Assembly: GCF_022919075.1 (NCBI RefSeq)
Contig: NZ_CP095078.1
Span: 1,736,001 to 1,800,000 of the forward strand
Origin: Nocardioides sp. W7
Lineage (GTDB): Bacteria; Actinomycetota; Actinomycetes; Propionibacteriales; Nocardioidaceae
Direction of reading: 5' to 3'
DNA length: 64,000 nucleotides
In this document: positions 18,393-40,586 of the stretch, piece by piece
Numbering within the stretch: the stretch's first letter is position 1
Layout of the letters: each line of letters starts with the position of its first letter
Position numbers and translations under genes: made by a program
The notes under the pieces: generated by a model
Told to the model about the DNA's origin: nothing
Seen by the model: only the letters and a program-made list of their open reading frames with translations
Databases searched by the model: none

Positions 18393-18491
18393 AGCGCTTT
18401 GCGTCTGCCCTCAAATGCGAGTCTCCTGCCCGGTGGTTGACTTAGTGGTGGGCCTGGACGCGATCCAGTGCGAACTGTCGAAGGACACCTC

Positions 18492-21971
<3,480 letters not shown>

Positions 21972-21982
21972 CCGGAGAACGC

Positions 21983-22018
21983 GCGGAGCGCTTGTTCCCA
22001 GGAACAGGCGCTCCGCGG
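21983..22018 (+). terminator. strong hairpin in the rpoB-rpoC gap
   Basis: CGCGGAGCGC and GCGCTCCGCG pair perfectly around a second stem (TTGTTCC/GGAACAG) in the 114-bp gap. rpoC has no obvious separate promoter and should be cotranscribed, so this may be a partial attenuator, a processing site or a stability element. There is no T-tract. Confidence 0.55.
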
Positions 22019-22085
22019 GGCCCAGCCCCTCCGCTCCGTCAGTCCACAAGCTTTGATTCAGAACTAACGAAGGACAACAGCCATC

Positions 22086-25964
<3,879 letters not shown>

Positions 25965-25974
25965 CATGCTCATG

Positions 25975-26064: not shown

Positions 26065-26095
26065 GCCGAGTCAGCACCAGTGGTGCTGACTCGGC
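26065..26095. repeat. perfect 15-bp palindrome plus a third half-copy
   Basis: GCCGAGTCAGCACCA, G, TGGTGCTGACTCGGC is a perfect inverted repeat. TGCTGACTCGGC recurs directly at 26106-26117, just before the 3' end of the kinase gene. It sits between convergent rpoC and kinase genes and could be the terminator of the latter. Confidence 0.6.
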
Positions 26096-26129
26096 CCGCT
26101 ACTTCTGCTGACTCGGCAAGGGCGGGGGA

Positions 26130-28133
26130 TCAGGGGTCGGGGAGGGTGACGGTGATGCGGGTGCCGGGGGTGGTGGGCTCGATGGTGAAGGTGCCGCGGA
26201 GCTCGGCGGCGCGCTCGCGCATCGAGCGCAGGCCGATGCCCGGGCGGGTGCCGGTGGCGACGCCGGTGCCGTCGTCCTCGACGACCAGGCGGACGCCGTC
26301 GTCGCAGCGGTCCAGGGTGACCTGGCAGCGGGTGGCGCCGGCGTGCCGGTAGGCGTTCAGGACCGCCTCCGCCGCGACGTGGTAGAGCGCGATCTGGCGG
26401 CGGCTGTCGATCCGGTCGGCGTCCTCGGCCCGGACGGCCACCGTGAACCGGCCCTGGTCGAAGCGCTCCACCAGCTGCTCGAGCGCCTCGCCGAGCCGAC
26501 CGTCCTCCAGCGCCGGGGGCAGCAGGTGCCGCGACATCTGCCGGACGTCCTCGGAGCGCTGGGCGAGCTCGTCCTGGAGCTGGGCGAGCATGTCGGCCTG
26601 ACCCGGCTCCAGGCCGGCGGTGCGACTGATGGCGGCCAGCGCGAGCGAGGTGCCGGCCAGTGAGGGGCCCAGGCTGTCGTGCAGCTCGCGGCGCAGCAGC
26701 CGACGCTCCTCCTGCCGCACGTCGACCAGCCTGGTCCTGGCCCCCTCCAGCTCCGCGTTGACCAGGGCGAGGTCGAGGGCGACGGCGACCAGGGCGGCGA
26801 GCTGCTCCACCAGCTCCAGGGTCCTCAGGTCGAGCCGCTCGCCCAGGGGCGCCTCCAGCACCAGCCGGCCGACGTCCTGACCGCGGCTGCGCAGCGGCAC
26901 CTCGACGGGGACGAACATCCGTCGCGGTCCGGCGCCGACCCGGAGGCCGCCACCGACGTCCTCGACCACCACGGCGCGCAGCCGCAGGCCGCGACGCAGG
27001 CCGTCGACCAGTCCCTCCAGGATCGACATCTCGCCGTGCCCGCGCTCGATGTCGGCCCCGAGTCGGTCGAGCAGCCGGCCGGCGTCCGCGCTGGAGCCGA
27101 AGACGAGCCGGTCGACCCGCACCTGCAGCCAGGTCCGCAGCGGCATCACGGCCAGCGCCAGGCCGGCCACCGCGACCAGCCCCGCCGACTCCCGACTCCA
27201 GGGCAGGTAGCGGCCGCCGAACCAGACCAGCACCAGGTAGGCGCCGACGACGGCGATCGTCAGCAGCGCGCCGACCAGGGCCCGGGAGACCGCCAGGTCG
27301 ACGCGGTACGACGGCTCCCGCACCACGAGCACGAACACCGCGGCGGGCAGCATCACCATCGCCGCGGAGAGCAGGAACGCGCCGAGCGGGACGGCGGGCC
27401 CCTCGGCCGCGAGGCCGGCCTCGAAGGCCAGGTAGGACAGCGAGAGCGCTAACAGGCTGACCATCAGCCAGCGCAGCGCGCGGCGCTCGGAGGCCACCGC
27501 GCGGTACGAGCGGAGCGCGAGGCGCAGGGCACCCAGGACCCCGGCGACGACGTAGACCGGGACGATCCACTCGTCGTACCGGGACGCGATGTCGGAGACG
27601 CGCGCCGAGGTCAGCGGGTGGTCGGGTGCGCCCTCCTGCTGGATCAGGAAGCGGCTCACCCCCGCACTGAGCGCCAGCACCCCGCCCGCCACCGAGGCGG
27701 AGAGCCGCAGCCCGGTCGGCGGGTCGCGCTCGATCAGCCACGGCAGCACCAGGATCGCGCACAGGGTGCCGGCGACCCACCCGGAGACGACCAGCTGCGA
27801 GACCAGGGCGTACGCCGGGGGCTGGGGATGCGCGACACCGAGGACGGCGTACTGGATCCCGAAGCTGGTGAGCGAGAAGCCGAACCCCACTCCGAGCAGG
27901 GCCCAGCCGACGACGTGGCCGCGGGCCACGACGAGGGCGCCGAACGGGCCGTAGAGGAGGGCAAGGAAGACGTCGGAGACGAAGAACTCCCGGTGCACCT
28001 CGAACGGCGGGTCGCCGGTCGAGGCGTTGACCAGGGCCAGCACCACCGCTGCGACGGCGAGTCCGGTCGAGAGCGCACCCAGGAGCACTGCGCTGCCACG
28101 CGCGACGCCGAGGGATCGGGGTGCGGCGGGCAT
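26130..28133 (-). CDS. sensor histidine kinase (HisKA_3 / NarL-type family)
   Basis: 667 residues. The N-terminal half has about ten hydrophobic segments (residues 1-330). A GAF-like region (about 350-450) is followed by a HisKA_3 dimerisation/phosphoacceptor helix (RRLLRRELHDSLGPSLAG, His in ELHDSL) and an ATPase domain with N-box ALYHVAAEAVLNAYRHAGA, and DDGTGV and GIGLRSMRERA loops. It should phosphorylate a LuxR-type response regulator, but none is adjacent, so it is an orphan. The signal is unknown. ATG 28133 lies 79 bp from the divergent reductase gene. Confidence 0.88.
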   Translation of the reverse strand: MPAAPRSLGVARGSAVLLGALSTGLAVAAVVLALVNASTGDPPFEVHREFFVSDVFLALLYGPFGALVVARGHVVGWALLGVGFGFSLTSFGIQYAVLGVAHPQPPAYALVSQLVVSGWVAGTLCAILVLPWLIERDPPTGLRLSASVAGGVLALSAGVSRFLIQQEGAPDHPLTSARVSDIASRYDEWIVPVYVVAGVLGALRLALRSYRAVASERRALRWLMVSLLALSLSYLAFEAGLAAEGPAVPLGAFLLSAAMVMLPAAVFVLVVREPSYRVDLAVSRALVGALLTIAVVGAYLVLVWFGGRYLPWSRESAGLVAVAGLALAVMPLRTWLQVRVDRLVFGSSADAGRLLDRLGADIERGHGEMSILEGLVDGLRRGLRLRAVVVEDVGGGLRVGAGPRRMFVPVEVPLRSRGQDVGRLVLEAPLGERLDLRTLELVEQLAALVAVALDLALVNAELEGARTRLVDVRQEERRLLRRELHDSLGPSLAGTSLALAAISRTAGLEPGQADMLAQLQDELAQRSEDVRQMSRHLLPPALEDGRLGEALEQLVERFDQGRFTVAVRAEDADRIDSRRQIALYHVAAEAVLNAYRHAGATRCQVTLDRCDDGVRLVVEDDGTGVATGTRPGIGLRSMRERAAELRGTFTIEPTTPGTRITVTLPDP

Positions 28134-28212
28134 GATCGATCATCCTGCCGCAGGAGTCCCGGCTACGAGGGCCGGATGCCCCGAACAGCCGGGCCGATGG
28201 GACAATCTGCGG

Positions 28213-29448
28213 GTGAGCATCCCCGCGAGGACCGACGTCCTGGTCGTCGGCGCCGGCCCCGCCGGTGCCGCTGCTGCGGCCTGGGCTGCGCGCGGCGGCG
28301 CCGACGTCGTGCTCGCCGACGCGGCGGTCTTCCCCCGCGACAAGACCTGCGGGGACGGGCTCACCCCCCGCGCGATCGGCGAGCTGCAGCGCCTCGGCCT
28401 CGAGGACTGGCTGCGCGCCCACACCGTCAACCAGGGCCTGCGGGCGCACGGCTTCGGCCAGACGCTCCTGCTGCCGTGGCCCGGTGGGTCGCTGCCCGAC
28501 TGGGGCTCGGCCGTCGCGCGCACCGAGCTCGACGACCACCTGCGCACCACGGCGCTGAAGTCCGGCGCCACCGGCATCGACGGCGCCCGCGCGGTCGACG
28601 TACGACGTGACGGCGAGCGGGTCGCCGCCGTCGTGTTCAAGACCGCCACCGGCACCGTCGAGATCGCGTGCGACACCCTCGTCGTCGCCGACGGGGTCCG
28701 CTCGCCGCTCGGCAAGATCCTCGGGCGGGAGTGGCACCGCGACACGGTGTACGGCGTCGCCGGACGCTCGTACGTCGCCTCCGAGCTGAGCGACGACCCG
28801 TGGATCAGCTCGCACCTGGAGCTGCGCGGGGAGGACGGGGACATCCTCAGCGGCTACGGCTGGATCTTCCCGCTCGGCACCGGCGAGGTGAACCTCGGCG
28901 TCGGCACGCTCGCGACCGCGAAACGGCCCACCGACATCGCCGTCCGACCGCTGATGGCGCACTACGCCGAGCAGCGCCGCGAGGAGTTCCGGCTCGGCGA
29001 CGAGCTGCGGGCCCCCACCTCCGCGCTCCTGCCGATGGGCGGGGCCGTCTCGCACGTCGCCGGGGCCAACTGGGCCCTGATCGGCGACGCGGCCGGCTGC
29101 GTGAACCCGCTCAACGGCGAGGGGATCGACTACGGCCTCGAGACCGGCCGGCTGGTGGCCGAGCTGATCGCCGACGGGGCGGCGCTGGACCGGGCCTGGC
29201 CCGCGCTGCTCAGCGAGCACTACGGCGAGGCGTTCTCGATCGCTCGCCGGCTCGCGGGGCTGGTCACCGTGCCGCGGCTGCTCCCCGCCCTCGGCCCGGT
29301 GGGCATGCGCTCGGACTGGCTGATGACCCTCGCGCTGCGCTGGATGGGCAACCTGGTGACCGACGAGGACCGCGACCGGGCGGCGCGGGTGTGGCGCTGG
29401 GCCGGCCGCCGCTCGATCGCCCGCGACCACCGACCGCCGTTCTCCTGA
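28213..29448 (+). CDS. geranylgeranyl reductase family FAD-dependent oxidoreductase (MenJ-like)
   Basis: 411 residues. Members reduce isoprenoid double bonds, for example in the menaquinone side chain (MenJ) or in archaeal-type lipids. The FAD-binding motif is [18 protein letters not shown]. The family stretch [18 protein letters not shown], then [11 protein letters not shown] and [20 protein letters not shown] (the second FAD motif), are all present. GTG 28213 is preceded by GACAAT (28201-28206) at 6 bp, suggesting a leaderless mRNA; a long in-frame extension upstream overlaps the divergent kinase and is rejected. A menaquinone role is inferred from actinobacterial relatives. Confidence 0.85.
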
Positions 29449-30500: not shown

Positions 30501-31622
30501 TCAGTACGCCGCGACCGCGGTCTCGCAGACGTTCAGCTCGGGACGGGCCCGGTTGTTGGTGAGCAGGTAGGACGAGACGATGAAGCTGCGCTTGACCTTC
30601 CCGACCTCGAAGAAGAGTCGCAGCATCCCGTTTCGGGGCAGGTCGATGCTGCCGACCAGTCCGGTCTCCGGGTCGTAGCCGATGCTCTCGCCGTCGACGT
30701 GCTGCTCCACCCGGCCCTCGCCGGTGACTGTCTCGACCCACACCCGGGCGCTGCGGTTGCGCATCGCCGGGGCCAGCGCGATGGTGCGCCGACCCTCGCG
30801 GGAGCCGGTGTCGGGCTCGCACCGCAGCTGCAGGGTGCCGAGCTGGGGCAGGTCGTACTCGGCGTGCTGGGTCGTGGCGGCGTCGGCGTCGCCGTGCCAG
30901 CTCACGCCCATCCGCGGGGCGTAGCGCGTGGTGAAGACGGCGTCAATCTTGCAGGAGCGCCACGACATCGGGTGCCGGAAGCCGGTCCACCACCAGTTCA
31001 GCTTGACCGACGTCACCGGCCGCGGCGCCGAGCCGGTGACCGGCTGGTTCCGGCCGGGGCGCTGGCTGATCACGCCGTCGAGGTAGCCGCTGGAGAAGTT
31101 CTCGATCCGGCCGCGCTGGTTGAGACCCTCGCTGGAGGTCGCGCCGGTGCCGCCGGTGCCGTCGTCGGCCGCGTCGGCGTACTGGTAGACCCGCGCGGTC
31201 TTGGTCGCGACCACGGCGCGGTTGTCCTTGGTCTCGTACTTCGCCATCCAGAACTGCGTCTCGGCGGAGCGGTCCTCGACCCGGAGCCGGAGGTACGTCG
31301 CGTTCGGCCGACACGTCATCGACAGTCGCCCGATCCCCGGGATCACCGCCGACTTGCTGTAGACCCGCCTCTTCTTGGTGCCCTTCCAGGAGACGGTGAC
31401 CTGCTGGACCCGGCGGTCGGACTGCTTCTTGCGCGCCGTCCGCATCGTCGCCGGCGCCCGCCCGGGGGTCCCGGCGCGGCTCGCGTCGAGCCTCACGACC
31501 CCCGAGGCGTCGCCGGTGGCGGCAGCCGCCGACGCGGAGGGTACGACGGAGCCGAGGCCCGCCGTCGCGAGCGTGAGGAGCAGGGGTACGGCGAGCCAGC
31601 GGCGGCTCCGAGACGGCGACAT
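30501..31622 (-). CDS. secreted protein of unknown function (last gene of the exopolysaccharide-like operon)
   Basis: 373 residues. Signal peptide of about 27 residues (LAVPLLLTLATAGLGSVVPS, then ASA). No family recognised. The mature part appears to contain related beta-rich segments: VIPGIGRLSMTCRPN, then YDLPQLGTLQLRCEPD and IDLPRNGMLRLFFEV share the pattern P-x-x-G-x-L-x-[ML]. Cysteines recur within these segments. Its ATG overlaps the upstream stop by one base (TGATG), so it is translationally coupled to the PstS-like lipoprotein. A role in binding or presenting the polymer outside the cell is inference from the operon only. Confidence 0.7.
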   Translation of the reverse strand: MSPSRSRRWLAVPLLLTLATAGLGSVVPSASAAAATGDASGVVRLDASRAGTPGRAPATMRTARKKQSDRRVQQVTVSWKGTKKRRVYSKSAVIPGIGRLSMTCRPNATYLRLRVEDRSAETQFWMAKYETKDNRAVVATKTARVYQYADAADDGTGGTGATSSEGLNQRGRIENFSSGYLDGVISQRPGRNQPVTGSAPRPVTSVKLNWWWTGFRHPMSWRSCKIDAVFTTRYAPRMGVSWHGDADAATTQHAEYDLPQLGTLQLRCEPDTGSREGRRTIALAPAMRNRSARVWVETVTGEGRVEQHVDGESIGYDPETGLVGSIDLPRNGMLRLFFEVGKVKRSFIVSSYLLTNNRARPELNVCETAVAAY

Positions 31623-33079
31623 CACTCGGCCGGCTGGTCGACGGGAGTGGCGTCGTCCGAGGACTCCTCGGACGAGGACTCCTCCTCCGGGACCACCAGC
31701 TCGGGGGCCTGCTCGCCCCGCACGACGGCCAGCTGTTGGGCCACGGTGGCATCGGGCAGGGGGACCAGCCGGGCGTCGTCGGCCGCCTCGACGGAGTGCT
31801 CGAGAGCGAACTCCAGCAGCTCGCGGAGGGTCTCGCGGTCCAACGAGCGGGTCGTCGTCGTGAGCAGCAGCCGCTGCGCGAGCGGGTACTCGCCCGAGAC
31901 GATCGTGCGCTGGCTGGGGAAGACGCAGTTGCGCTGGCCGTCGGGGAGCGTGATCTCGAAGGGGCGGAGCTGGTCCTCGAAGAGCTCGTAGTAGCTGAAC
32001 CGGAAGTACGCCACGTTGCCGCGGGTCTCCTCGTAGCGGCGCAGCGCGGCGGTCGTCGACACCGCGTTGCCCCGGACCCGCACCCAGCGGGCCCGGAGGT
32101 CGCGCATCACGGCCCGGGCGGACCGCCACGCGGCCCGCGCCTGGTCCAGACGCTGCTGGTCGCGCACCTGCTGGTCGGCGGGGCGCCGGTCGCGGACGCC
32201 CTTGGCCACCTCGGCCTCGGCCGCCTGGACCTCCTCGTAGGCGTCGGCGACGACCTGACGTTGGCCGGCGACCTGGCTGCGGAGCTCCTCGCGGACCCGC
32301 AGCCGGTCGGCGTTGCGGGCGGCGAGCCGCTTGTCGCGGGCGCTGCCGACGACGAAGGTCCGCGAGCCGCGGTCGTTGTCGAAGGACTCGTAGTCGGAGC
32401 GCAGGTTGACCAGGGACGGCTGCGGCGCGTCGAGCACCACGCGGCCGAAGAAGCTGAATGCCTGGTTGTCCTGGTCGGGACCCGCGACGCTCAGCGGTAC
32501 GCCGTCGAGGCCGACCTGCTCCCAGTTCGTGACGGGGGAGCCGGCCCGGTAGATGTCCTGGACCTGCTGGGTGTCCAGGCAGTCGCCGCCGACGTCGGAC
32601 TCGGACTTGATGGCCACGACGACGGCGTCCGCGCCGACCTGGAACTGGACCACGTCGAGCCCCACGGCACGGCAGGCGTCCCACTCGGCCCGGGTGATCT
32701 CACGGTCGGAGTCGACGACGTCGATCTCGCCGGCACACAGCCGCTGGAAGGCGGCGTCCTCGCCGTTCGCGTCCACGTCGACGGTCGTCGACGTGCCGTC
32801 GCGGAGGTAGGCGGCGGTGAGGTCGCGGGTCAGCGAGCTGTCGGTGTTGCCGTCGATGGACACCGTGCCGGCCTGCGGGGTCGGCAGCTCCGCCGCCCGG
32901 CGGGCGACCTCCTGCTGCTGTGCCAGCTCGCTGCGGTTCTGCACGTTCTGGGCCTCGGCGACCAGGTCGCCGCCGTCGGAGTCGTCGGAGCTGCACGAGG
33001 CGAGCAGACCGGCGGCGAGCAGCAGTCCGGTGCCGGTGGCGAGACGTCGTACGCCGGCGCTGCGCGTGGGGCGGCGCAT
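31622..33079 (-). CDS. PstS-like substrate-binding lipoprotein with a long helical insertion
   Basis: 485 residues. Lipobox LLAS-C at Cys29. Residues about 70-245 resemble a PstS-type periplasmic-binding fold (VSIDGNTDSSLTRDLTAAYL, GEIDVVDSDREITRAEWDAC, then TQQVQDIYRAG-SPVTNWEQVG). Residues about 247-350 are a highly charged, probably coiled-coil insertion (RLRVREELRSQVAGQRQVVA ...). The binding fold then resumes with GNVAYFRFSYYE and IVSGEYPLAQRLLLTT, where PstS would normally continue directly. The C-terminus is acidic and Ser-rich. No pst permease genes are nearby, so phosphate import is unlikely; it may bind a product or scaffold the complex. Coupled by TGATG on both sides. Confidence 0.75.
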   Translation of the reverse strand: MRRPTRSAGVRRLATGTGLLLAAGLLASCSSDDSDGGDLVAEAQNVQNRSELAQQQEVARRAAELPTPQAGTVSIDGNTDSSLTRDLTAAYLRDGTSTTVDVDANGEDAAFQRLCAGEIDVVDSDREITRAEWDACRAVGLDVVQFQVGADAVVVAIKSESDVGGDCLDTQQVQDIYRAGSPVTNWEQVGLDGVPLSVAGPDQDNQAFSFFGRVVLDAPQPSLVNLRSDYESFDNDRGSRTFVVGSARDKRLAARNADRLRVREELRSQVAGQRQVVADAYEEVQAAEAEVAKGVRDRRPADQQVRDQQRLDQARAAWRSARAVMRDLRARWVRVRGNAVSTTAALRRYEETRGNVAYFRFSYYELFEDQLRPFEITLPDGQRNCVFPSQRTIVSGEYPLAQRLLLTTTTRSLDRETLRELLEFALEHSVEAADDARLVPLPDATVAQQLAVVRGEQAPELVVPEEESSSEESSDDATPVDQPAE

Positions 33080-34224
33080 CAGGGTGCTCCCTCGGTGGTG
33101 GTCGGAGTGGCGCTGGGCGTGCCCGGGGTGGCGCGGGCGCCGTCGCCGGCGTCCGCCTCGTCGGGCGGGTACTGGTAGCGGGTGCCGAGCTGGACGACCT
33201 CGAAGTCGTCGAGGTGCAGGCCCTGCAGCTCGTTGCCGCGGAGCATGTCGCCGGTGACGTCGCGCTGGGCGTACAACGTCGGTACGGCGGCGCGGTCCAC
33301 GACGATCGCCCCGTAGGTGCGCAGGGCCAGGGCGATCGCGTCGGCGTACCGGCGCTGCTGGTCGGTCATCGGGATCGGCTCACCGGTCACCGGGTCGACC
33401 GGGTCCGCCATGGTCACGTCGGCCTTGAGACGGATCCGGGCGCCTTCGGGCAGCGACTGGGGCCGGCCGTTGCCGTCGGTCGACGACGCGGGCTGGACGA
33501 ACGAGCTCTGGGCCGGGCCCGGCACGCTGATCGCGAGCGCGTGCTCGATCCGGCCGGCGTTCAGCTCGCCTGGGCGGATCAGCCCGGCGAACAGCGGGAG
33601 GCCGGAGCCGCGGGCACCGACGACCTGAGGGTCGCTGAAGCCCTCGCCCTCGAGCTCCCAGATCCGCATGAAGTGGTAGGAGATGCTCCCGTCGTCCTCG
33701 CGGCGCGCGCGCCACAGGTCGTAGGCGATCGACTTGCTGGGGTCGAAGATGGTGTACCAGCCGTCGTAGCGCGGGTCGGGGTCGACGTCGGTCGGGACGT
33801 CGAGCACCATGCTGGCCTCGCCGTCGCCGCAGACGATCTGCCGGCACACGACGGGGGTCGGCTTGCCGCCGGCGACCACGGGCGTCGTCCAGGCCTCGGT
33901 GTTGATGTAGACCGGGTCGGTGATGCGGCGCGGCTCGGTGCGGATCCGGTCGCCGTTCTCGACGACGCCGATCCGCTCCTGGGCCAGGTCCATCATCGCG
34001 ACGGAGTCGGGATCGACCGTGAGGTCGTCGGCCCGGGTGTTCCACGGGGAGGAGTCGGAGAAGAAGCGGGTCTCGGCGGAGGTCAGGGTGTTGGCCGCAT
34101 CGGCGCCGTCCGCGGTGATCTGGAGGTCCGGCTCGGGCGCCGCGGGATCGTCGCCTCCGCAGCCGGCGAGCACGAGGGCGGCGACGGTGGCGAGCGCGAC
34201 GAGCCCGTGCCGGCGGGCGTTCAC
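33079..34224 (-). CDS. actinobacterial lipoprotein of unknown function (SPWNT-motif family)
   Basis: 381 residues. Lipobox VLAG-C (Cys22) after a short signal. The N-terminal motif SSPWNTRADDLTVDPDSVAM and the later GARGSGLPLFAGLIRPGEL-NAGRIEHALAISVPG resemble, from memory, a family of uncharacterised secreted actinobacterial proteins with an XWNTP motif. TYGAIVVDRAAV lies near the C-terminus, which ends in a Pro/Thr tail. GTG 34224 overlaps the upstream stop (GTGA). No enzymatic residues could be assigned. It is predicted to sit on the outer face of the membrane beside the polysaccharide machinery. Confidence 0.72.
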   Translation of the reverse strand: MNARRHGLVALATVAALVLAGCGGDDPAAPEPDLQITADGADAANTLTSAETRFFSDSSPWNTRADDLTVDPDSVAMMDLAQERIGVVENGDRIRTEPRRITDPVYINTEAWTTPVVAGGKPTPVVCRQIVCGDGEASMVLDVPTDVDPDPRYDGWYTIFDPSKSIAYDLWRARREDDGSISYHFMRIWELEGEGFSDPQVVGARGSGLPLFAGLIRPGELNAGRIEHALAISVPGPAQSSFVQPASSTDGNGRPQSLPEGARIRLKADVTMADPVDPVTGEPIPMTDQQRRYADAIALALRTYGAIVVDRAAVPTLYAQRDVTGDMLRGNELQGLHLDDFEVVQLGTRYQYPPDEADAGDGARATPGTPSATPTTTEGAP

Positions 34225-35105
34225 GACCAGCTCCGGTGATCGGCGACCGAGGTGGACTCGATGCTCGAGTCCAGGGTCTGGGCGAACCGCGAGAAGGTGC
34301 CGCCGACATCGGCGAGCCGCCGCTCGGTGGGCGTCGCCCCGCCGAGGGACCCGGTCCGGGTGCGCGCGGCGGTGACGATGGCGTGCGCCTCGCGGCGGGC
34401 GTGCAGGCGGATCAGCTCCGCGTCGAGCTCGGCCTGCGCCGTCAGCAGCTCCAGGCGCCGGGCCGCCTCGTTCTCGATGGCCTCCAGGTGGCGCAGGTGG
34501 GCGACCTCGGCCGCGCGCATCCGGACGCGTGCGGACTCCGCGACCTCCTCGACCGAGAGACCCAGGTAGGCGACGTCGTTCTCGGGCACGGTCGACGGGC
34601 TGGTCAGCGTCGGCGTCCGGCGACGCAGGCGCGCCCGGGCGTACGGGTCGGCGTAGGCGTCGGGGTACTCGTCGAGGTCGTCGTGCTCCTCGGGCCCGTC
34701 GTCGGCCGGCTCGGGCTCGGTGAAGGACTGGGGCTCGATCTCCGGCTCGGGCTCGACCGCCTCGACGTGCACCTCGGGCTCGTCCAGCTCGGCCTCGTCC
34801 GGCTCGGCCTCGGCCGGTTCGGCCTCGGCGGCGGGTGCGAGGACGGGCGCCTCGTCGACGGGCACGGACGTGGGCTCGGCCGCGGCCGGCTTCGGCGTGG
34901 GCAGGGTGGCCTTGGCGCTCGGGCGGGGTCGGGCCTTCGCCTTGCCGGACCGGGCCGAGGGTGCGGCCGGCTCCCCGGACGCTGTCTCGTCGCGCTGGTC
35001 GGGGACCAGGCGGGAGGCGAAGTCGACGCGCCCGATCAGGGTCTCGCCCCCCGAGAGGATGTCGGCGAGCGACGGGGGCGGAGCGATCTTGTCGTGGTCG
35101 ATCAT
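34221..35105 (-). CDS. acidic/helical cytoplasmic protein of unknown function
   Basis: 294 residues, no signal or membrane helix. Residues 1-60 are an ordinary segment (IAPPPSLADILSGGETLIGR). About 60-165 is Pro/Ala/Glu-rich and very acidic, likely disordered (EAEPAEAEPDEAELDEPEVH). A helical C-terminal half (about 185-265, VEEVAESARVRMRAAEVAHL ... LLTAQAELDAELIRLHARRE) is probably a coiled coil. The layout recalls adaptor or polar-organiser proteins rather than an enzyme, but this is inference. Start ATG 35105 overlaps the membrane-protein stop (ATGA), placing it between the glycosyltransferases and the lipoproteins. Confidence 0.7.
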   Translation of the reverse strand: MIDHDKIAPPPSLADILSGGETLIGRVDFASRLVPDQRDETASGEPAAPSARSGKAKARPRPSAKATLPTPKPAAAEPTSVPVDEAPVLAPAAEAEPAEAEPDEAELDEPEVHVEAVEPEPEIEPQSFTEPEPADDGPEEHDDLDEYPDAYADPYARARLRRRTPTLTSPSTVPENDVAYLGLSVEEVAESARVRMRAAEVAHLRHLEAIENEAARRLELLTAQAELDAELIRLHARREAHAIVTAARTRTGSLGGATPTERRLADVGGTFSRFAQTLDSSIESTSVADHRSWS

Positions 35106-36892
35106 CGGACCGAGCCTCCTTGGCTGTTGCCGGTCGACGGCGCCGGGACGTTGGTGCCGGTGCCGTCGGCGGCGGGGTCGGCGGCGTCGCCGCGCTGGTA
35201 GCCGGCGGGGACGCCGACGAGGCGGTAGCGGGGCGTGGAGAAGAGCTCGGGCAGCATCGCGTCGTTGCCGTCGACGGCGTCGGTGTAGAGCTGGCTGAGC
35301 AGGTCCTCGCTGGTGTCGGTGGACAGCAGCAGGTAGCGAACGCCGGCTCGGGCCGGGTTCTTCGCGGCGGTCTGCCACGGGCCGTCGGAGTGGTCGACCC
35401 GGTCGAAGAAGAGGGCCGGGTCGCCGGTCAGCAGCATCACGCCGTACGTCTGGGCGTTGTCGGTGAGGATCGAGTCCTGGCCGGTGATGTTGGCGCGGAT
35501 GTAGTCGGCCATCGCCTGCTCGGAGACCACGCCGATGGTGCCGCCCCCGATGGTCCGCGCGCCCTCCTGGCTCTCGCCGGTGCTGATCGCGGCGGCGAAG
35601 GCGGACTCGAGGTTCTGGTAGCGGTAGGTCTTCATGGCGTGGAAGGTCCACGGGATGCTGGCGACGAGGACCGCGACCAGCACCGCGCTGACCGCGGCGT
35701 TCTGGGTGCCGGAGGAGCGGGCCACCCAGATCGCACCGACGACCGCGAACAGCAGGATCGGCAGGGCGTTGCGCATCAGCATCGGCGCGTCGGCGAGACC
35801 GAGCGCCACCGACGCGGCGGGGGCGAGGATCGCGGCCCCGAGCATCACCGCGAGCCACAGCGCGAAGCCGTTGTTGCGGAAGCCGCTGAAGATCAGCGCG
35901 GGCAGTACGACGATCGCCAGCGGCGCGCCGTACAGGACCAGCTCGCCGGTGTACTGGGCGAGCTCGAGGAAGCTGAAGTGCTCCGTGGCGCCCGACGCGG
36001 CCGCGTCGTTGCTGTTGGTGATCCAGGCGATCGGGTTCGACAGCAGGATCAGGTTGAAGGCCGTCCAGAGGGCGATGACGTACGCCGTCGGCGCGGCGAA
36101 GCCGACCGTGGTGCCCTCGATCTCCTCGCCCCGTGCGCCGAGCCGGCTCAGCACCGAGCCGATCATCAGCGCGCCGATGGCGAACCAGATCAGGCTGGAG
36201 TAGCCGGCGAGCATCGCGACCGAGAAGGCGAGGCCCGAGATCATCACGAAGCGGATGTCGGCGGTGACGTACCAGGCGAACAGGGCGCCGACCGCGGCCA
36301 TCACCAGCGAGATCCAGATGAAGTGCCGCGACCCGCCCGCGCCGTACAGCAGCACCAGCGGGTTGGCGCCGACCGCGAGCAGCACGGCGTACCGCAGCGC
36401 GATGAGCACCTGGGCGCGGCGCAGCATGCTGTTGAGCAGCACCATGGTCGCGGCGGCGAACAGCGCCGACGCCACGGGGACGATCACCAGCGAGCGGGCC
36501 AGTGCGGGGATCAGGGTCAGCGGCGAGATCAGCAGGGTGGCCAGCGGCGGGTAGTCGAAGCCGATGGCGGAGAGCTTGGCGGGGTCGTTGTGCCAGACCA
36601 TCAGCGAGCGGTTGAGCCGGTCCAGGGTCTCGAAGCTCACCACGTGCATCTCGGCGACCAGCCAGTAGCCGAACCAGATGTAGGCGACGGCGAAGAACGC
36701 GAAGATCGCGAGGCTCTCCCACCGGCGGCGCTCGATGTCGTGCGGGCGGTGGCCGACGGCCTGGACGGTGCCGGCCAGTCGCTCCTTGGTACGACGGACG
36801 ACCTGGTCCTTCTCGGCCTGGGCGCCGTCGAGCTGGCCGGTCCCGGACGGGGTGGGCTCGGTCGGGGTGGGCTCGGTGACGGACGTGTTCAT
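35102..36892 (-). CDS. multi-spanning membrane protein, GT-C-type glycosyltransferase-like
   Basis: 596 residues. After an N-terminal cytoplasmic tail of about 60 residues come about eleven hydrophobic helices (from WESLAIFAFFAVAYIWFGYW onwards) and a C-terminal extracytoplasmic domain of about 160 residues. The motif FDYPPLATLLISPLTLIP resembles the YPP loop seen in polyprenyl-phosphate-sugar-dependent GT-C enzymes (GT39/GT87-like). A lipid-linked sugar donor and transfer on the outer face would follow from that family. Coupled to the upstream GT2 by TGATG. It could instead be a non-catalytic channel partner of the GT2. Confidence 0.7.
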   Translation of the reverse strand: MNTSVTEPTPTEPTPSGTGQLDGAQAEKDQVVRRTKERLAGTVQAVGHRPHDIERRRWESLAIFAFFAVAYIWFGYWLVAEMHVVSFETLDRLNRSLMVWHNDPAKLSAIGFDYPPLATLLISPLTLIPALARSLVIVPVASALFAAATMVLLNSMLRRAQVLIALRYAVLLAVGANPLVLLYGAGGSRHFIWISLVMAAVGALFAWYVTADIRFVMISGLAFSVAMLAGYSSLIWFAIGALMIGSVLSRLGARGEEIEGTTVGFAAPTAYVIALWTAFNLILLSNPIAWITNSNDAAASGATEHFSFLELAQYTGELVLYGAPLAIVVLPALIFSGFRNNGFALWLAVMLGAAILAPAASVALGLADAPMLMRNALPILLFAVVGAIWVARSSGTQNAAVSAVLVAVLVASIPWTFHAMKTYRYQNLESAFAAAISTGESQEGARTIGGGTIGVVSEQAMADYIRANITGQDSILTDNAQTYGVMLLTGDPALFFDRVDHSDGPWQTAAKNPARAGVRYLLLSTDTSEDLLSQLYTDAVDGNDAMLPELFSTPRYRLVGVPAGYQRGDAADPAADGTGTNVPAPSTGNSQGGSVR

Positions 36893-39015
36893 CAGTGCCC
36901 CTCGTCCAGACCGTGCTCGGTCTTCTCCCAGTAGAACGGGTTCGTGAAGAGCTGGATGAAGCCCTTCCACGCCGCCAGGCTCATCAGGCCCCAGTACAGC
37001 GGCGAGAGCAGGGCGGTGCTGGTGATCCCGAACTCGCCGCGTTGCAGGCTGCCCGCCACGTTGAGGTAGATGAAGACGAAGTTGCCGACGAACAGCATCG
37101 CGCTGGCGACGTAGAAGACGATGCCCGGGAAGAGCTGCTCGATGAAGCCGGCCTGGGTGAAGAAGTACAGCGTGGTCAGGCCCCAGAAGATCGGGTTGAG
37201 CAGCAGCACGAACGCGCTGCCCATGGTCAGGTTGAAGCTCATGAAGCCGCGCAGACCGGTCTGCGCGAGCAGCTGGAGCGGGTTGCGCATGTGGACCAGC
37301 CAGGTCTGGAAGTAGCCCTTGTTCCAGCGGCTGCGCTGCCGGATCCAGTTCGGGACGACCGAGTTGGCCTCCTCCAGCGTCGTGGAGTCGATCATCGCCG
37401 TGCGGTAGCCCTTGCGGTGCAGGCGGATGCCGAGGTCGGCGTCCTCGGTCACGTTGAACGGGTCCCAGGCGCCCAGCTCGCGCAGCGTCGAGGTCACGAA
37501 GTGGTTGGAGGTGCCGCCGAGCGGGATCGGGGAGCCCGCGGCGCCCATGGCGGGCAGGATCAGCTCGAAGTGCATGGAGTACTCGTTGGCGAACCAGGCC
37601 GTCAGCATGTTCTGGTCCTGGTTGAAGTGGTTCAGCTTGGCCTGGACACAGGCGACGTTGCGGTCGACGCGGGTGAAGGTGACGAACGCCTTCTTCAGCT
37701 GGTCGGGGTCTGGGCGGTCCTCGGCGTCGAAGATCACGCAGTACTTGCCCTTGGACAGCTGCAGGCCGTAGTTGCAGGCCTTCGGCTTGGTCTTCGGCAG
37801 GCTGTCGGGGACGACCACCAGGTGGAAGTGCGGCGGCAGGTTCATCGAGCGGATCTTCTCGATCGTCTCGACGTCGTCCTCCTCGCAGAGGAGCTTCACG
37901 TCCAGGCGGGTCTTCGGGTAGTCCAGCGCGTTCATGTCGCGGACCAGGCGCGGCACGATCCCAGCCTCCTTGTAGAGCGGGACCAGGATCGTGTAGATCG
38001 GCAGGATCCGCTCGTCGAGGTCGGCGAGCTCCTCGTCGGTGACGTCGTACTCGAGGTGCGTGCCGAGCGCTCGCAGGGTGAGCCGGAACTTGTAGACCGA
38101 CACCGCGAGGTAGGCGACGCTGCACAGCGCCACCAGCCCGATCAGGGTCTCCATCGGCCAGACGACCCCCACCAGCACGGCGAGGATGATGAGGCAGACG
38201 AAGAACGCCTTCTGGGTCGGCGAGACGACCACGTGGGCCGACTCCTCGGGCCGGGTCTCCATCATCAGCCGGGTCGCGACCTCGGCGTAGTGGTGCGAGT
38301 GCACCCGCTGGATGAGCTGGTCGAGGTCGATGCGGTTGGCCAGCAGCTGGCGGACCGGACGGCCCAGGGCCGCCTCGACCCGGGCCAGGTCCTCGTGGCC
38401 GAGCGGCCGGGCGACCGCCACCAGGAACTCGTTGCCCGAGCGGGCGACCGGGAGGGCCTGCAGCTCCTGCGCGAGCACCTCGGGCAGCGCCCGGGACACC
38501 TCGTCCTCGGGCTCGAAGTCGGTGAGGCCGACCCGTTGGAGCTGGTGCAGCTCGGAGAGGGCGGCGACCAGCACGTCCTCGGAGATCGCCCCGTGGGAGA
38601 CCAGGATGTCGCCGAGCGGGTCGCCGGTGCGGGAGTACTCCAGGGTGGCTGCCTGCAGCTGGTCCTCGGTCACCAGACCGCTGCGGGTCAGCATCTGGGC
38701 GATCTGGACCCGCGCCCGACGGTCCTCGGGGGACTCGAGGTTCTCCTCCAGTGCCGGGTAGACGGCGTCGATGGCGCCGTTGATCTCGTTGACGGTGTGT
38801 CGCACGAGGACGAACGGACGGGTGAACCGCTCCGCGACGACGCGCTCGACGATCGGGTCGGAGACGTCGGCCGTCGCGATCAGCAGCTGGCCCTCGACCT
38901 CGGCGTACGGCAGCACCCGGAAGGTGCGGCAGAAGCCCTCGGGAAGCAGCAGGCCGAGCTCGGGGTCGATGCCGTCGGTGAGGCGGGACGCGGCGGCGAC
39001 AGCAGTGGTGGTCAC
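36892..39015 (-). CDS. processive-type GT2 (cellulose-synthase-like) with N-terminal MshEN-type domains
   Basis: 707 residues. Residues 16-90 and 100-250 resemble the MshEN/T2SSE_N fold: LLPEGFCRTFRVLPYAEVEG, then IAQMLTRSGLVTEDQLQAAT and PLGDILVSHGAISEDVLVAA (the LGxxLxxxGxIxxxxLxxAL pattern). MshEN domains bind cyclic di-GMP in several proteins, including the glycosyltransferase NfrB. Two helices (270-310) precede a GT2 domain with the processive synthase motifs EEDD (378-381), DAED (430-433), TED (523-525) and QRSRW (560-564). Four C-terminal helices would form the translocation channel. The product should be a beta-linked polysaccharide; the sugar is unknown. GTG 39015 overlaps the small upstream gene. 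Confidence 0.82.
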   Translation of the reverse strand: MTTTAVAAASRLTDGIDPELGLLLPEGFCRTFRVLPYAEVEGQLLIATADVSDPIVERVVAERFTRPFVLVRHTVNEINGAIDAVYPALEENLESPEDRRARVQIAQMLTRSGLVTEDQLQAATLEYSRTGDPLGDILVSHGAISEDVLVAALSELHQLQRVGLTDFEPEDEVSRALPEVLAQELQALPVARSGNEFLVAVARPLGHEDLARVEAALGRPVRQLLANRIDLDQLIQRVHSHHYAEVATRLMMETRPEESAHVVVSPTQKAFFVCLIILAVLVGVVWPMETLIGLVALCSVAYLAVSVYKFRLTLRALGTHLEYDVTDEELADLDERILPIYTILVPLYKEAGIVPRLVRDMNALDYPKTRLDVKLLCEEDDVETIEKIRSMNLPPHFHLVVVPDSLPKTKPKACNYGLQLSKGKYCVIFDAEDRPDPDQLKKAFVTFTRVDRNVACVQAKLNHFNQDQNMLTAWFANEYSMHFELILPAMGAAGSPIPLGGTSNHFVTSTLRELGAWDPFNVTEDADLGIRLHRKGYRTAMIDSTTLEEANSVVPNWIRQRSRWNKGYFQTWLVHMRNPLQLLAQTGLRGFMSFNLTMGSAFVLLLNPIFWGLTTLYFFTQAGFIEQLFPGIVFYVASAMLFVGNFVFIYLNVAGSLQRGEFGITSTALLSPLYWGLMSLAAWKGFIQLFTNPFYWEKTEHGLDEGH

Positions 39016-39254
39016 TGGGCACCCGATCCGAAGCCGGTGGTCGGGGTCTCGGGCGAGGCACCGGCCCGGCGCTTGGCCTCATTGCGACCGCGCATGACGG
39101 TGTAGACGAGGAAGGCGATCGCGAGGGCGAGCAGCGGCGCGACCAGGAAGGTGACGACCACGACGAGGAACCCGCCGAGCTGCAGCAGGGCGCCGAGGCC
39201 CGCGGCGCCCGCGCTCTTGCCCTCCGGGCGCGACGATGTTGCTTGGACCGTCAT
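39012..39254 (-). CDS. small membrane protein, first gene of the exopolysaccharide-like operon
   Basis: 80 residues with one or two hydrophobic helices (LGALLQLGGFLVVVVTFLVA and PLLALAIAFLVYTVM) and a basic cytoplasmic end (RGRNEAKRRAG). No family recognised. It is accepted because its stop overlaps the GT2 start (GTGA), it heads the gene set, and codon bias matches its neighbours. Small membrane partners accompany many polysaccharide synthases; a partner role here is inference. Confidence 0.65.
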   Translation of the reverse strand: MTVQATSSRPEGKSAGAAGLGALLQLGGFLVVVVTFLVAPLLALAIAFLVYTVMRGRNEAKRRAGASPETPTTGFGSGAQ

Positions 39255-39392: not shown

Positions 39393-40586
39393 TCACTTTG
39401 GCGAGATGGGTGGGACCGGCTCGCCGGAGAGCCAGGCCCGGGCGCGAACTCCGTACTCGGTGGGGGTGCCGCCCTGCTCGACCAGCAGGGACATCGGGTC
39501 GGTCGCGTGCGCGGCCCAGACCCAGAACAGCGCGCCGATGCCGTGCTCGTCGGCCCAGTCGAGCTGGTCGTCGACGTAGCCGGCGAGCGGGTCCGTGGCG
39601 CCCAGCTCGGCGATCAGCACCGGTACGTCGTCGGCGAGCGGAGCGAGGACGGAGTCCCAGCACTCGCGGGTCGAGCACTCCTTGAAGTCGTAGCTGTGGA
39701 AGGCCGCCACGAGCTGGTCGTCGTCGGGGGCGAACTCGCGCCACCGGCTGAGGTCGTTGGCGTAGTCGAGCCCGCCGAGGAGGACCGGCTGGTCGGCGCC
39801 GCTGTCGCGGATCTCGCCGACGACCGCGGCCATGCCCTGCACGGGGTAGGTCTCCCGGCTGTCGGGCGTGGTCTGGTCGTCCACGGCCGGGGCCGCGCAG
39901 CCGCCGTCGCGCCAGCACTCCCAGGTCAGGTCGAAGACCAGCTCGTCGGTGGCGTCGTAGCGCGAGTAGGGCTCGTTGAACGCGTCGAACATCACCGAGG
40001 GGTTGTGCTGGTACGCCGTCGCGACGCTGCGCCAGAAGAGCAGCGACTCGCTGTCGGGCATCGCCAGGTTGCCGAACTCGGGCGCGGGCGCCCGCTTGCG
40101 GCTGTGCAGGTCGAGGATCACCACCAGGCCGTGGCGGTTCAGGGCGGTGACGAACCGGGCGACCTCGTCGCGGTAGCCCTGTGCGGTGCGCTCCTCGTAC
40201 TGGTCGCTCACCGGTGCCCCGCGGCTGCCGAGCCAGCAGTCCTGGTTGAGGGGGAGTCGGACGGTGTTGGCGCCCCACGCGGCGATCGCGGCGGCCTGGG
40301 TGGCGTGCGGCTCCGCCGAGCCGGTGCTGTCCAGGGAGCTGATGCCCCAGCCCTGGGCGCAGGCGTACTCGAAGCTCGACCAGTTCACGCCGCGCGGCAC
40401 GAAGGTGCTGCCGTCGCGGGTGTCGACGAGCCGCTTCCCGTCCACCCGCGGCTGCGGGGCGCCGGTGGTGGCGGCCGCCGCGTCGGGATCGTCGTCGAGC
40501 AGCCCCGACTTCCCGACGGAGAATGCAGCGGCGCCCAGCAGCAGGGCGATCGACGTCGCCAGCAGGACGCGAACGTGTCGACGCAC
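39393..40586 (-). CDS. glycoside hydrolase family 5 (cellulase-like), membrane-anchored or secreted
   Basis: 397 residues. N-terminal hydrophobic helix (VLLATSIALLLGAAAFSVG) without a clear cleavage site. GH5 hallmarks: FVPRGVNWSSFEYACAQGWG, WGANTVRLPLNQDCWL, the acid/base Glu in FDAFNEPYSRY, and the nucleophile Glu in VLIAELGAT. GH5 enzymes cut beta-1,4-glucans or mannans. Endoglucanases encoded beside cellulose synthases (BcsZ-type) edit or release the polymer, which fits the synthase immediately downstream on the same strand. GTG 40586 has GGGAAAGGGGGG upstream; TACGAT at 40619-40614 (minus) is a plausible -10. Confidence 0.86.
   Translation of the reverse strand: MRRHVRVLLATSIALLLGAAAFSVGKSGLLDDDPDAAAATTGAPQPRVDGKRLVDTRDGSTFVPRGVNWSSFEYACAQGWGISSLDSTGSAEPHATQAAAIAAWGANTVRLPLNQDCWLGSRGAPVSDQYEERTAQGYRDEVARFVTALNRHGLVVILDLHSRKRAPAPEFGNLAMPDSESLLFWRSVATAYQHNPSVMFDAFNEPYSRYDATDELVFDLTWECWRDGGCAAPAVDDQTTPDSRETYPVQGMAAVVGEIRDSGADQPVLLGGLDYANDLSRWREFAPDDDQLVAAFHSYDFKECSTRECWDSVLAPLADDVPVLIAELGATDPLAGYVDDQLDWADEHGIGALFWVWAAHATDPMSLLVEQGGTPTEYGVRARAWLSGEPVPPISPK

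What the first reader, a model, noticed from the sequence alone, without database searches (positions are those of the whole stretch)
36892..39015. Cellulose-synthase-like glycosyltransferase controlled by N-terminal MshEN-type domains
Residues 100-165 contain two adjacent arms of the LGxxLxxxGxIxxxxLxxAL pattern and are flanked by two half-domains of the T2SSE_N type, ahead of a GT2 with DAED, TED and QRSRW. In the phage-N4-receptor enzyme NfrB an MshEN domain makes the GT2 respond to c-di-GMP; here the sensor is at the opposite end. The first arm begins RVQIAQ and the second PLGDIL rather than RLG, so ligand binding might be weakened or lost.
Basis: partly seen in the sequence, partly recalled or inferred. 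Interest (0 to 1): 0.72.

Follow-up and report, generated by a model that had tools for sequence, protein, structure and literature searches.

The report
Glucan synthase with a decayed sensor
A soil-bacterium enzyme resembling cellulose synthase carries a module that in other bacteria senses the signal molecule c-di-GMP, but here the module has lost most of the residues that grip the signal and is still kept by evolution, so it probably no longer answers to c-di-GMP.

Summary
The gene (minus strand, 36892-39015, 707 aa, probably Nocardioides) is real. An N-terminal MshEN module with an extra half-domain precedes a processive-type GT2. Profiles and an AlphaFold2 model agree. This order is not unique: all 10 relatives tested by Pfam, from several phyla, share it.

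R9, G11, Q32, R38 and Q61 are Q, A, Y, P and L. Paenibacillus, Sporolactobacillus and most Solirubrobacterales relatives read keep both Gly and both Gln. In the genus, 20 of 38 carrier genomes have no GGDEF match, yet the arms stay more constrained than the regions beside them. All 21 rows with at least 3 of 4 Gly/Gln positions lie in GGDEF-bearing genomes, against 24 of 46 others; with only 3-4 independent changes this is not significant.

Most likely: a cell-surface polysaccharide (perhaps beta-glucan) synthase in a conserved operon, whose MshEN domain is now structural or reads another input. Binding was not measured. Against: PilF GSPII-B binds without arginines, single changes in NfrB are mostly mild, and an NCBIfam c-di-GMP model still passes its cut-off.

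The parts
36892..39015 (-). MshEN-GT2 glycosyltransferase gene, 707 aa, GTG start
38749..38979 (-). extra N-terminal MshEN C-subdomain-like half, residues about 13-89
   Evidence: PF05157 match at G000:C1:1774749-1774979; beta/alpha pattern in the model
38548..38706 (-). two-arm (MshEN_N) region, residues 104-156; R9/G11/Q32/R38/Q61 replaced by Q/A/Y/P/L, G40 kept
   Evidence: NF053729; helices 96-111, 117-130, 134-140, 146-157
38299..38544 (-). MshEN C-subdomain, residues 158-239
   Evidence: PF05157; 5htl match
38068..38220 (-). long helices 266-285 and 287-316 in front of the GT2 domain, taken as two transmembrane helices (inferred)
   Evidence: model secondary structure
37321..37995 (-). 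GT2 catalytic domain, residues 341-565, with DAED, TED and QRSRW
   Evidence: PF13641; conserved columns; structure and profile matches
36943..37281 (-). C-terminal helices, residues 579-691, taken as membrane helices (inferred); no PilZ match follows
39393..40586 (-). GH5 cellulase-family protein with an N-terminal hydrophobic segment, 138 bp upstream
   Evidence: PF00150 E 1.7e-27; gap; found in 24 of 30 Nocardioides-type loci
39012..39254 (-). 80-aa putative small membrane protein, overlaps the GT2 start by 4 nt
35102..36892 (-). GT-C-fold membrane glycosyltransferase (polyprenyl-phosphate-sugar type, inferred), overlaps the GT2 stop by 1 nt
   Evidence: model pLDDT 80.0; yeast oligosaccharyltransferase and ArnT matches; weak homologue in Paenibacillus is PMT_2
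34221..35105 (-). 294-aa protein with a charged, coiled-coil-like C-terminus (by eye)
33079..34224 (-). putative lipoprotein, no family above cut-off
31622..33079 (-). PstS/PBP-like putative lipoprotein
   Evidence: PF12849 E 2e-17; TIGR02136 88.4 bits, below its cut-off

Best explanation
This is a membrane-bound, processive-type GT2, closest in sequence among solved proteins to BcsA (cellulose synthase). It probably polymerises an exopolysaccharide, perhaps a beta-glucan, together with operon partners: a GT-C membrane glycosyltransferase that may decorate it and a GH5 glucanase that may trim it. The polymer and the partners' roles are inferred. An ancestral enzyme with an N-terminal MshEN module was probably switched by c-di-GMP, as relatives with intact arms may still be. 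In the Nocardioides lineage the ligand-binding positions decayed, and the domain is kept under purifying selection for another purpose: holding the enzyme, docking a partner or binding something else. So the synthase here is probably not gated by c-di-GMP. Shown: domain order, fold, replaced residues, conservation, operon and lack of GGDEF matches in many carriers. Inferred: loss of binding, the direction of change, the polymer and the new role.
For: MshEN and GT2 by profiles and by model (pLDDT 87.7; MshE 5htl Z 18.3; BcsA entries Z 18-26). R9, G11, Q32, R38 and Q61 replaced, G40 kept; the same 1 of 4 Gly/Gln positions in 31 of 31 close Nocardioides-type rows, against 4 of 4 in all 8 non-Patulibacter Solirubrobacterales rows read, 3 of 3 Paenibacillus and 2 of 2 Sporolactobacillus rows, and 3 of 4 in 4 Patulibacter-type rows. 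Precedent: PilF GSPII-A, a natural non-binder, needed changes at the positions of Q32, R38 and Q61 to regain binding and at Gly for affinity (PMC12002112, passages); XpsE, with several changes, does not bind (PMC5013675, section read); NfrB G491L abolished N4 killing and G519S partly (PMC8669472, passages). No GGDEF match in 20 of 38 same-genus carriers, 17 of 34 after dropping 4 less complete or contaminated genomes. pN/pS of residues 104-156 is 0.425 in 14 GGDEF-free and 0.307 in 16 GGDEF-bearing carriers; the four regions beside it have 0.55-0.69. Operon genes overlap by 1-4 nt; the GT-C, lipoprotein and PstS-like genes are found in 30, 27 and 27 of 30 Nocardioides-type loci and 14, 13 and 13 of 14 Patulibacter/Solirubrobacterales loci. 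BcsB-family genes lie near the GT2 in L086, L095 and L102, not among the two neighbours scanned in L103.
Against: No binding or enzyme assay. NF053729, named c-di-GMP-binding, still passes its cut-off (47.7 against 38). In MshE, single Arg9/Asp12/Gln32 changes cost no more than about fivefold (PMC5013675, passages), and in NfrB most single substitutions had no effect on N4 infection in one study. PilF GSPII-B binds tightly with Lys and Leu in place of both arginines and unwinds a helical turn on binding (PMC11731258, passages). Hydrophobic positions, the main contacts, are largely kept (I105, L120, L134, L149, L153; T124 differs, M in 23 of 31 rows). The own genome has a GGDEF protein with an intact GGDEF signature. 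The arm region is somewhat less constrained in GGDEF-free than in GGDEF-bearing carriers (0.425 against 0.307), while the GT2 domain is not (0.287 against 0.322), which would fit a remaining link to c-di-GMP. The motif/GGDEF association does not survive relatedness: 3 independent pairs on starred branches (4 in all), median p 0.5. Sphingomonad relatives with 1 of 4 Gly/Gln positions have 10-20 GGDEF matches. Polymer type: the top VIA-align match is a mannosyltransferase, PcManGT (Z 28.8), above BcsA, and hyaluronan synthases reach 20-23, so the fold does not name the sugar; no same-strand GH5 was found in the Patulibacter/Solirubrobacterales loci (0 of 14, several with short upstream flanks).
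Confidence: 0.65

Rival explanations
1. The domain still binds c-di-GMP, weakly or in a shifted mode, and activates the synthase in cells that make it, as MshEN does in NfrB.
For: NF053729 passes its cut-off; hydrophobic positions mostly kept; GSPII-B shows that arginines are dispensable; single Arg/Gln changes in MshE are mild; the own genome has one GGDEF protein with an intact signature; the arms are more constrained in GGDEF-bearing than in GGDEF-free carriers; clade-invariant R102 and Q158 lie two residues outside the canonical R9 and Q61 positions.
Against: Both Gln and one Gly are gone together; in PilF GSPII-A a comparable set goes with no binding. 20 of 38 same-genus carriers have no GGDEF match.
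Confidence: 0.2
2. The arms now recognise a different small ligand, with the clade's own invariant residues (R99, R102, Q104, R129, D132, Q158, R161) forming a new site.
For: R99, R102, R129, D132, Q158 and R161 are identical in 31 of 31 rows and Q104 in 30 of 31; constraint persists in GGDEF-free genomes.
Against: No ligand known; the same pattern would follow from a protein-protein interface or from folding.
Confidence: 0.12
3. The module is only a scaffold or docking surface, for example for the operon's coiled-coil protein (34221-35105), and the synthase is constitutive or controlled by expression. This is one form of the best explanation.
For: The coiled-coil-like gene is detected in 26 of 30 Nocardioides-type loci and 0 of 14 Patulibacter/Solirubrobacterales loci, whose arms, where read, are intact or nearly so; two of the four misses (L039, L056) have an ORF with a similar tail.
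Against: Aeromicrobium stalagmiti has a coiled-coil-like ORF at the same place and a partly intact motif; no interaction tested.
Confidence: 0.35

Closest known systems
NfrB of E. coli (c-di-GMP-activated glycosyltransferase; PMC8669469 and PMC8669472, passages)
   Same: GT2 and MshEN in one membrane protein; DxD, TED, QxxRW
   Different: MshEN is C-terminal; arms keep PLG and RLG...Q (sequence printed); c-di-GMP binding shown and its need inferred from mutants; partners are NfrA and YbcH
BcsA cellulose synthase
   Same: GT2 with flanking membrane helices (Z 18-26; best solved GT by profile); some relatives of the window protein sit near BcsB-family genes
   Different: no PilZ domain, MshEN instead at the N-terminus; CelA model TIGR03030 51.9 bits, far below its cut-off 699.1; no BcsB match among the operon proteins scanned
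MshEN domain of MshE (5htl) and PilF GSPII-A, -B, -C
   Same: same fold and two-arm layout
   Different: key Gly/Gln/Arg positions replaced, closest in state to the non-binding GSPII-A; fused to a GT2, not an ATPase
PcManGT (6yv7), archaeal GT2 mannosyltransferase
   Same: highest Z of the structural comparison (28.8 over 339 residues)
   Different: 346-residue chain without an MshEN part
BgsA of Sinorhizobium meliloti (PMC5567048, start of abstract seen in a listing)
   Same: cellulose-synthase-like GT
   Different: described there as lacking a predictable c-di-GMP domain and having a novel one

Membership tests
MshEN (PF05157) domain family | profile match above the curated cut-off | tested here: met
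   70.3 bits against 23.1. The best stretch is the C-subdomain, so it says little about binding.
MshEN (PF05157) domain family | MshE fold | tested here: met
   5htl_B Z 18.3, rmsd 2.5 A, 138 aligned, model 100-239
c-di-GMP-binding MshEN | two RLGxx...LxxxLxxQ motifs (Wang 2016, PMC5013675, passages) | tested here: not met
   1 of 6 R/G/Q positions and 6 of 12 key positions kept
c-di-GMP-binding MshEN | NCBIfam NF053729 cut-off | tested here: met
   47.7 bits against 38
c-di-GMP-binding MshEN | measured nucleotide binding | not testable with these tools
   needs ITC or DRaCALA
Processive GT2 | DxD, TED, QxxRW | tested here: met
   DAED, TED, QRSRW; invariant in 36 sequences except T523 (90% or more)
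BcsA cellulose synthase | CelA equivalog score (TIGR03030) | tested here: not met
   51.9 against 699.1 bits
BcsA cellulose synthase | C-terminal PilZ domain | tested here: not met
   no PilZ match in the protein nor in the whole genome at E <= 0.001
BcsA cellulose synthase | product is beta-1,4-glucan | not testable with these tools
   needs enzymology
NfrB | equivalog score NF008411 | tested here: not met
   56.6 against 1170 bits, match confined to residues 98-254, the MshEN part

The most novel reading that the evidence does not exclude
A cell-surface glycan synthase family in which a c-di-GMP receptor domain became a kept pseudo-receptor, in Nocardioides and apparently separately in Mucilaginibacter-type Bacteroidota, so that a second-messenger switch was replaced by a new input read by the same scaffold.
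Probability: 0.3. Interest if true: 0.62.

Novelty: new variant of a known kind. Interest (0 to 1): 0.45.

Why it matters
MshEN annotation is easily read as 'c-di-GMP receptor', and a curated model of that name still fires here. Yet in this fused enzyme most ligand residues are gone and about half of the same-genus carriers have no GGDEF match. The family offers matched pairs, intact and decayed, in comparable operons, to test how a receptor domain is retained after it loses its signal. It also points to an uncharacterised group of BcsA-like synthases, some beside BcsB-family genes, whose sensor would be MshEN instead of PilZ.

Tried and rejected
Rejected: plus-strand coding of 36892-39015; the frame is open but has no Pfam match at E <= 0.01. 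Rejected: the large minus-strand ORFs at 18411-25973 and 26071-29430; no Pfam match, while plus-strand ORFs there match the two large RNA polymerase subunits and a FAD-binding family. Rejected as proof: the raw Fisher test of motif against GGDEF (p 4e-5), since independent pairs number 3-4 and are not significant; that pair test used the six R/G/Q positions with at least 4 kept, a slightly different cut. No association in the genus between having the ortholog and having GGDEF: 18 of 38 against 95 of 158, p 0.20. A divergent second type of MshEN-GT2 in the genus lies in GGDEF-bearing genomes in 10 of 11 cases. Of the 10 I could read (my extraction of L113 hit a stop and gave nothing), 3 keep all four Gly/Gln positions (L114, L115, L118), 4 keep three (L112, L116, L117, L119), L122 two, and L120 and L121 one, although the last two genomes have 17 GGDEF matches each; so the contrast is suggestive only. 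Helix alpha-1 starting at residue 96 in the model, eight before the arm, was considered as a block to binding but not relied on, because GSPII-B unwinds a turn on binding. The root of the tree is unreliable (NfrB branch very long), so loss rather than gain is inferred from the wide spread of intact arms. Five of 81 aligned rows lacked a readable arm region and were dropped (L074, L078, L087, L108, L110). Nine more had no GGDEF count: L039 and L077 were not held, and L094, L096, L097, L101, L104, L106 and L109 were not submitted. That leaves 67, the window included. GGDEF searches were given 50 and 21 loci, 71 of the 80; 69 were held. For these genomes no completeness is told, and several are metagenome bins, so a missing GGDEF there is weaker than in the genus set. 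Paper searches for this architecture listed no study that I recognised as being about an N-terminal MshEN-GT2, but Wang 2016 states that MshEN can be fused to glycosyltransferases. One search was too broad to be useful, and only open-licence papers are held.
Full report
What is there. The finding's coordinates hold a 707-aa gene on the minus strand with a GTG start at 39015. The plus frame is also open but has no Pfam match. The genome is one contig of 5.5 Mb. The nearest named relative found is Nocardioides lianchengensis (91% identity), so the genus is probably Nocardioides (inferred). Pfam gives MshEN (E 1.3e-19, two stretches) and GT2 (E 6.5e-22). The two MshEN stretches are residues about 13-89 and 158-239. 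Between them NCBIfam NF053729 finds the two-arm motif at 107-155, above its cut-off. The model (pLDDT 87.7, pTM 0.84) matches MshE with c-di-GMP over 100-239 (Z 18.3, 2.5 A). Over about 282-705 it matches PcManGT (Z 28.8), BcsA entries (Z 18-26), plant cellulose synthases and hyaluronan synthases. Foldseek ranks BcsA first, and by sequence profile BcsA is the best solved glycosyltransferase.

The arms. By alignment, arm 1 is Q104 to Y127 and arm 2 P133 to L156. Against MshE, R9, G11, Q32, R38 and Q61 are Q, A, Y, P and L; G40 is kept. L10, L25, L39, L54 and L58 are I or L; L29 is T here and M in 23 of 31 close rows. None of the 31 rows of the Nocardioides type has G11, Q32 or Q61. Both Gly and both Gln are kept in 8 of 8 Solirubrobacterales rows outside Patulibacter (L059, L064-L068, L070, L072; L074 could not be read), 3 of 3 Paenibacillus and 2 of 2 Sporolactobacillus rows; four Patulibacter-type rows keep 3 of 4.

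Does it bind? Published work gives a scale. Wang 2016 (PMC5013675; abstract, passages and one section read) reports that single hydrophobic changes cost over 10-fold but single Arg9, Asp12 or Gln32 changes no more than about fivefold, and that XpsE has lost binding through several changes. For PilF GSPII-A, a natural non-binder with changes at Q32, R38, G40 and Q61, three positions had to be restored for measurable binding and Gly for high affinity, after trimming the domain (PMC12002112, passages). In NfrB, G491L abolished N4 killing and G519S partly did, while most other substitutions tried had no effect (PMC8669472, passages). GSPII-B binds tightly without arginines (PMC11731258, passages). 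My reading is that loss of both Gln, one Gly and both Arg together makes high-affinity binding unlikely, but not excluded.

Evidence from genomes. In 196 genomes of the genus, 113 have a GGDEF match. The ortholog (64-100% identity) is in 38 of them. Of these, 18 have GGDEF and 20 do not; leaving out four genomes under 90% complete or over 5% contaminated, 17 and 17. So the gene is kept where no diguanylate cyclase domain is detected. I read the arms of the named relatives, not of all 38. Over the wider family, all 21 rows with 3-4 of the 4 Gly/Gln positions lie in GGDEF-bearing genomes, against 24 of 46 others. The two data sets overlap. On the tree there are only 3-4 independent changes of motif state; GGDEF never goes the opposite way, but this is not significant. 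Sphingomonad relatives (group name recalled) have decayed arms and 10-20 GGDEF matches, so decay also occurs where c-di-GMP is probably made. Mucilaginibacter relatives have 0 of 4 positions; 4 of the 5 genomes counted have no GGDEF match, the fifth a weak one (2e-4).

Still under selection. Within the Nocardioides type, residues 104-156 have pN/pS 0.425 among 14 GGDEF-free carriers and 0.307 among 16 GGDEF-bearing ones. The N-half, the linker, the C-subdomain and the first membrane region range from 0.55 to 0.69; the GT2 domain has 0.29-0.32 and the C-terminal membrane part 0.33-0.40. These are raw proportions over pairs that share history. The looser arms in GGDEF-free carriers could mean a remaining tie to c-di-GMP. 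R99, R102, R129, D132, Q158 and R161 are identical in 31 of 31 rows. The domain therefore still does something.

Context. Six genes from the 80-aa protein to the PstS-like protein overlap by 1 or 4 nt, with a GH5 gene 138 bp upstream. Of 30 Nocardioides-type loci, the GT-C gene is found in 30, the lipoprotein and PstS-like genes in 27 each, the coiled-coil gene in 26 and GH5 in 24; some of the misses have short flanks. Of 14 Patulibacter/Solirubrobacterales loci, the first three are found in 14, 13 and 13, the coiled-coil gene and a same-strand GH5 in none. The membrane protein models as a GT-C enzyme (pLDDT 80; yeast oligosaccharyltransferase and ArnT among the best), and its weak Paenibacillus homologue matches PMT_2. 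BcsB-family genes lie near the GT2 in L086, L095 and L102; in L103 two neighbours scanned gave no match. Together these suggest a secreted polymer, perhaps a beta-glucan; the sugar is not known.

Novelty. An N-terminal MshEN with a C-terminal GT2 is common: all 10 relatives tested, of 80 found, carry both. NF053729 falls below its cut-off or is not listed in 5 of these 10 (L054, L055, L086, L102, L103). Wang 2016 already mentions glycosyltransferase fusions. What looks new is the combination of a conserved, decayed sensor with intact relatives and GGDEF-free carriers. I found no paper on it, which cover open-licence papers only.

Stating the mild single-substitution results, the looser arms in GGDEF-free carriers and the PcManGT match led me to lower the main confidence from 0.68 to 0.65 and raise the first rival from 0.17 to 0.20.

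Noticed in passing
G000:C1 4.064-4.075 Mb (L001, L004, L005): The genome's only two GGDEF matches lie close together, about 8 kb from its only other MshEN protein, a T2SSE-family ATPase whose arms are also decayed (3 of 12 key positions). One GGDEF has an intact signature; the other reads NGDSF and belongs to a PAS-GGDEF-EAL protein.
   Followed up: partly
L114, L115, L118: A second, divergent MshEN-GT2 type in the same genus; these three copies keep both Gly and both Gln. Genomes G057 and G169 carry both types.
   Followed up: partly
L122 (genome G207): A 39%-identical relative keeps QLG...Q in arm 1 but PLS...L in arm 2, a possible intermediate state; its genome is not among the 113 with a GGDEF match.
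   Followed up: no
window 33079-34224: Putative lipoprotein with no Pfam match above cut-off, yet conserved in operons from Nocardioides to Solirubrobacterales (38-83% identity).
   Followed up: no
L086, L102, L095: MshEN-GT2 near a BcsB-family gene: possible cellulose-synthase-like systems with MshEN in place of PilZ.
   Followed up: partly
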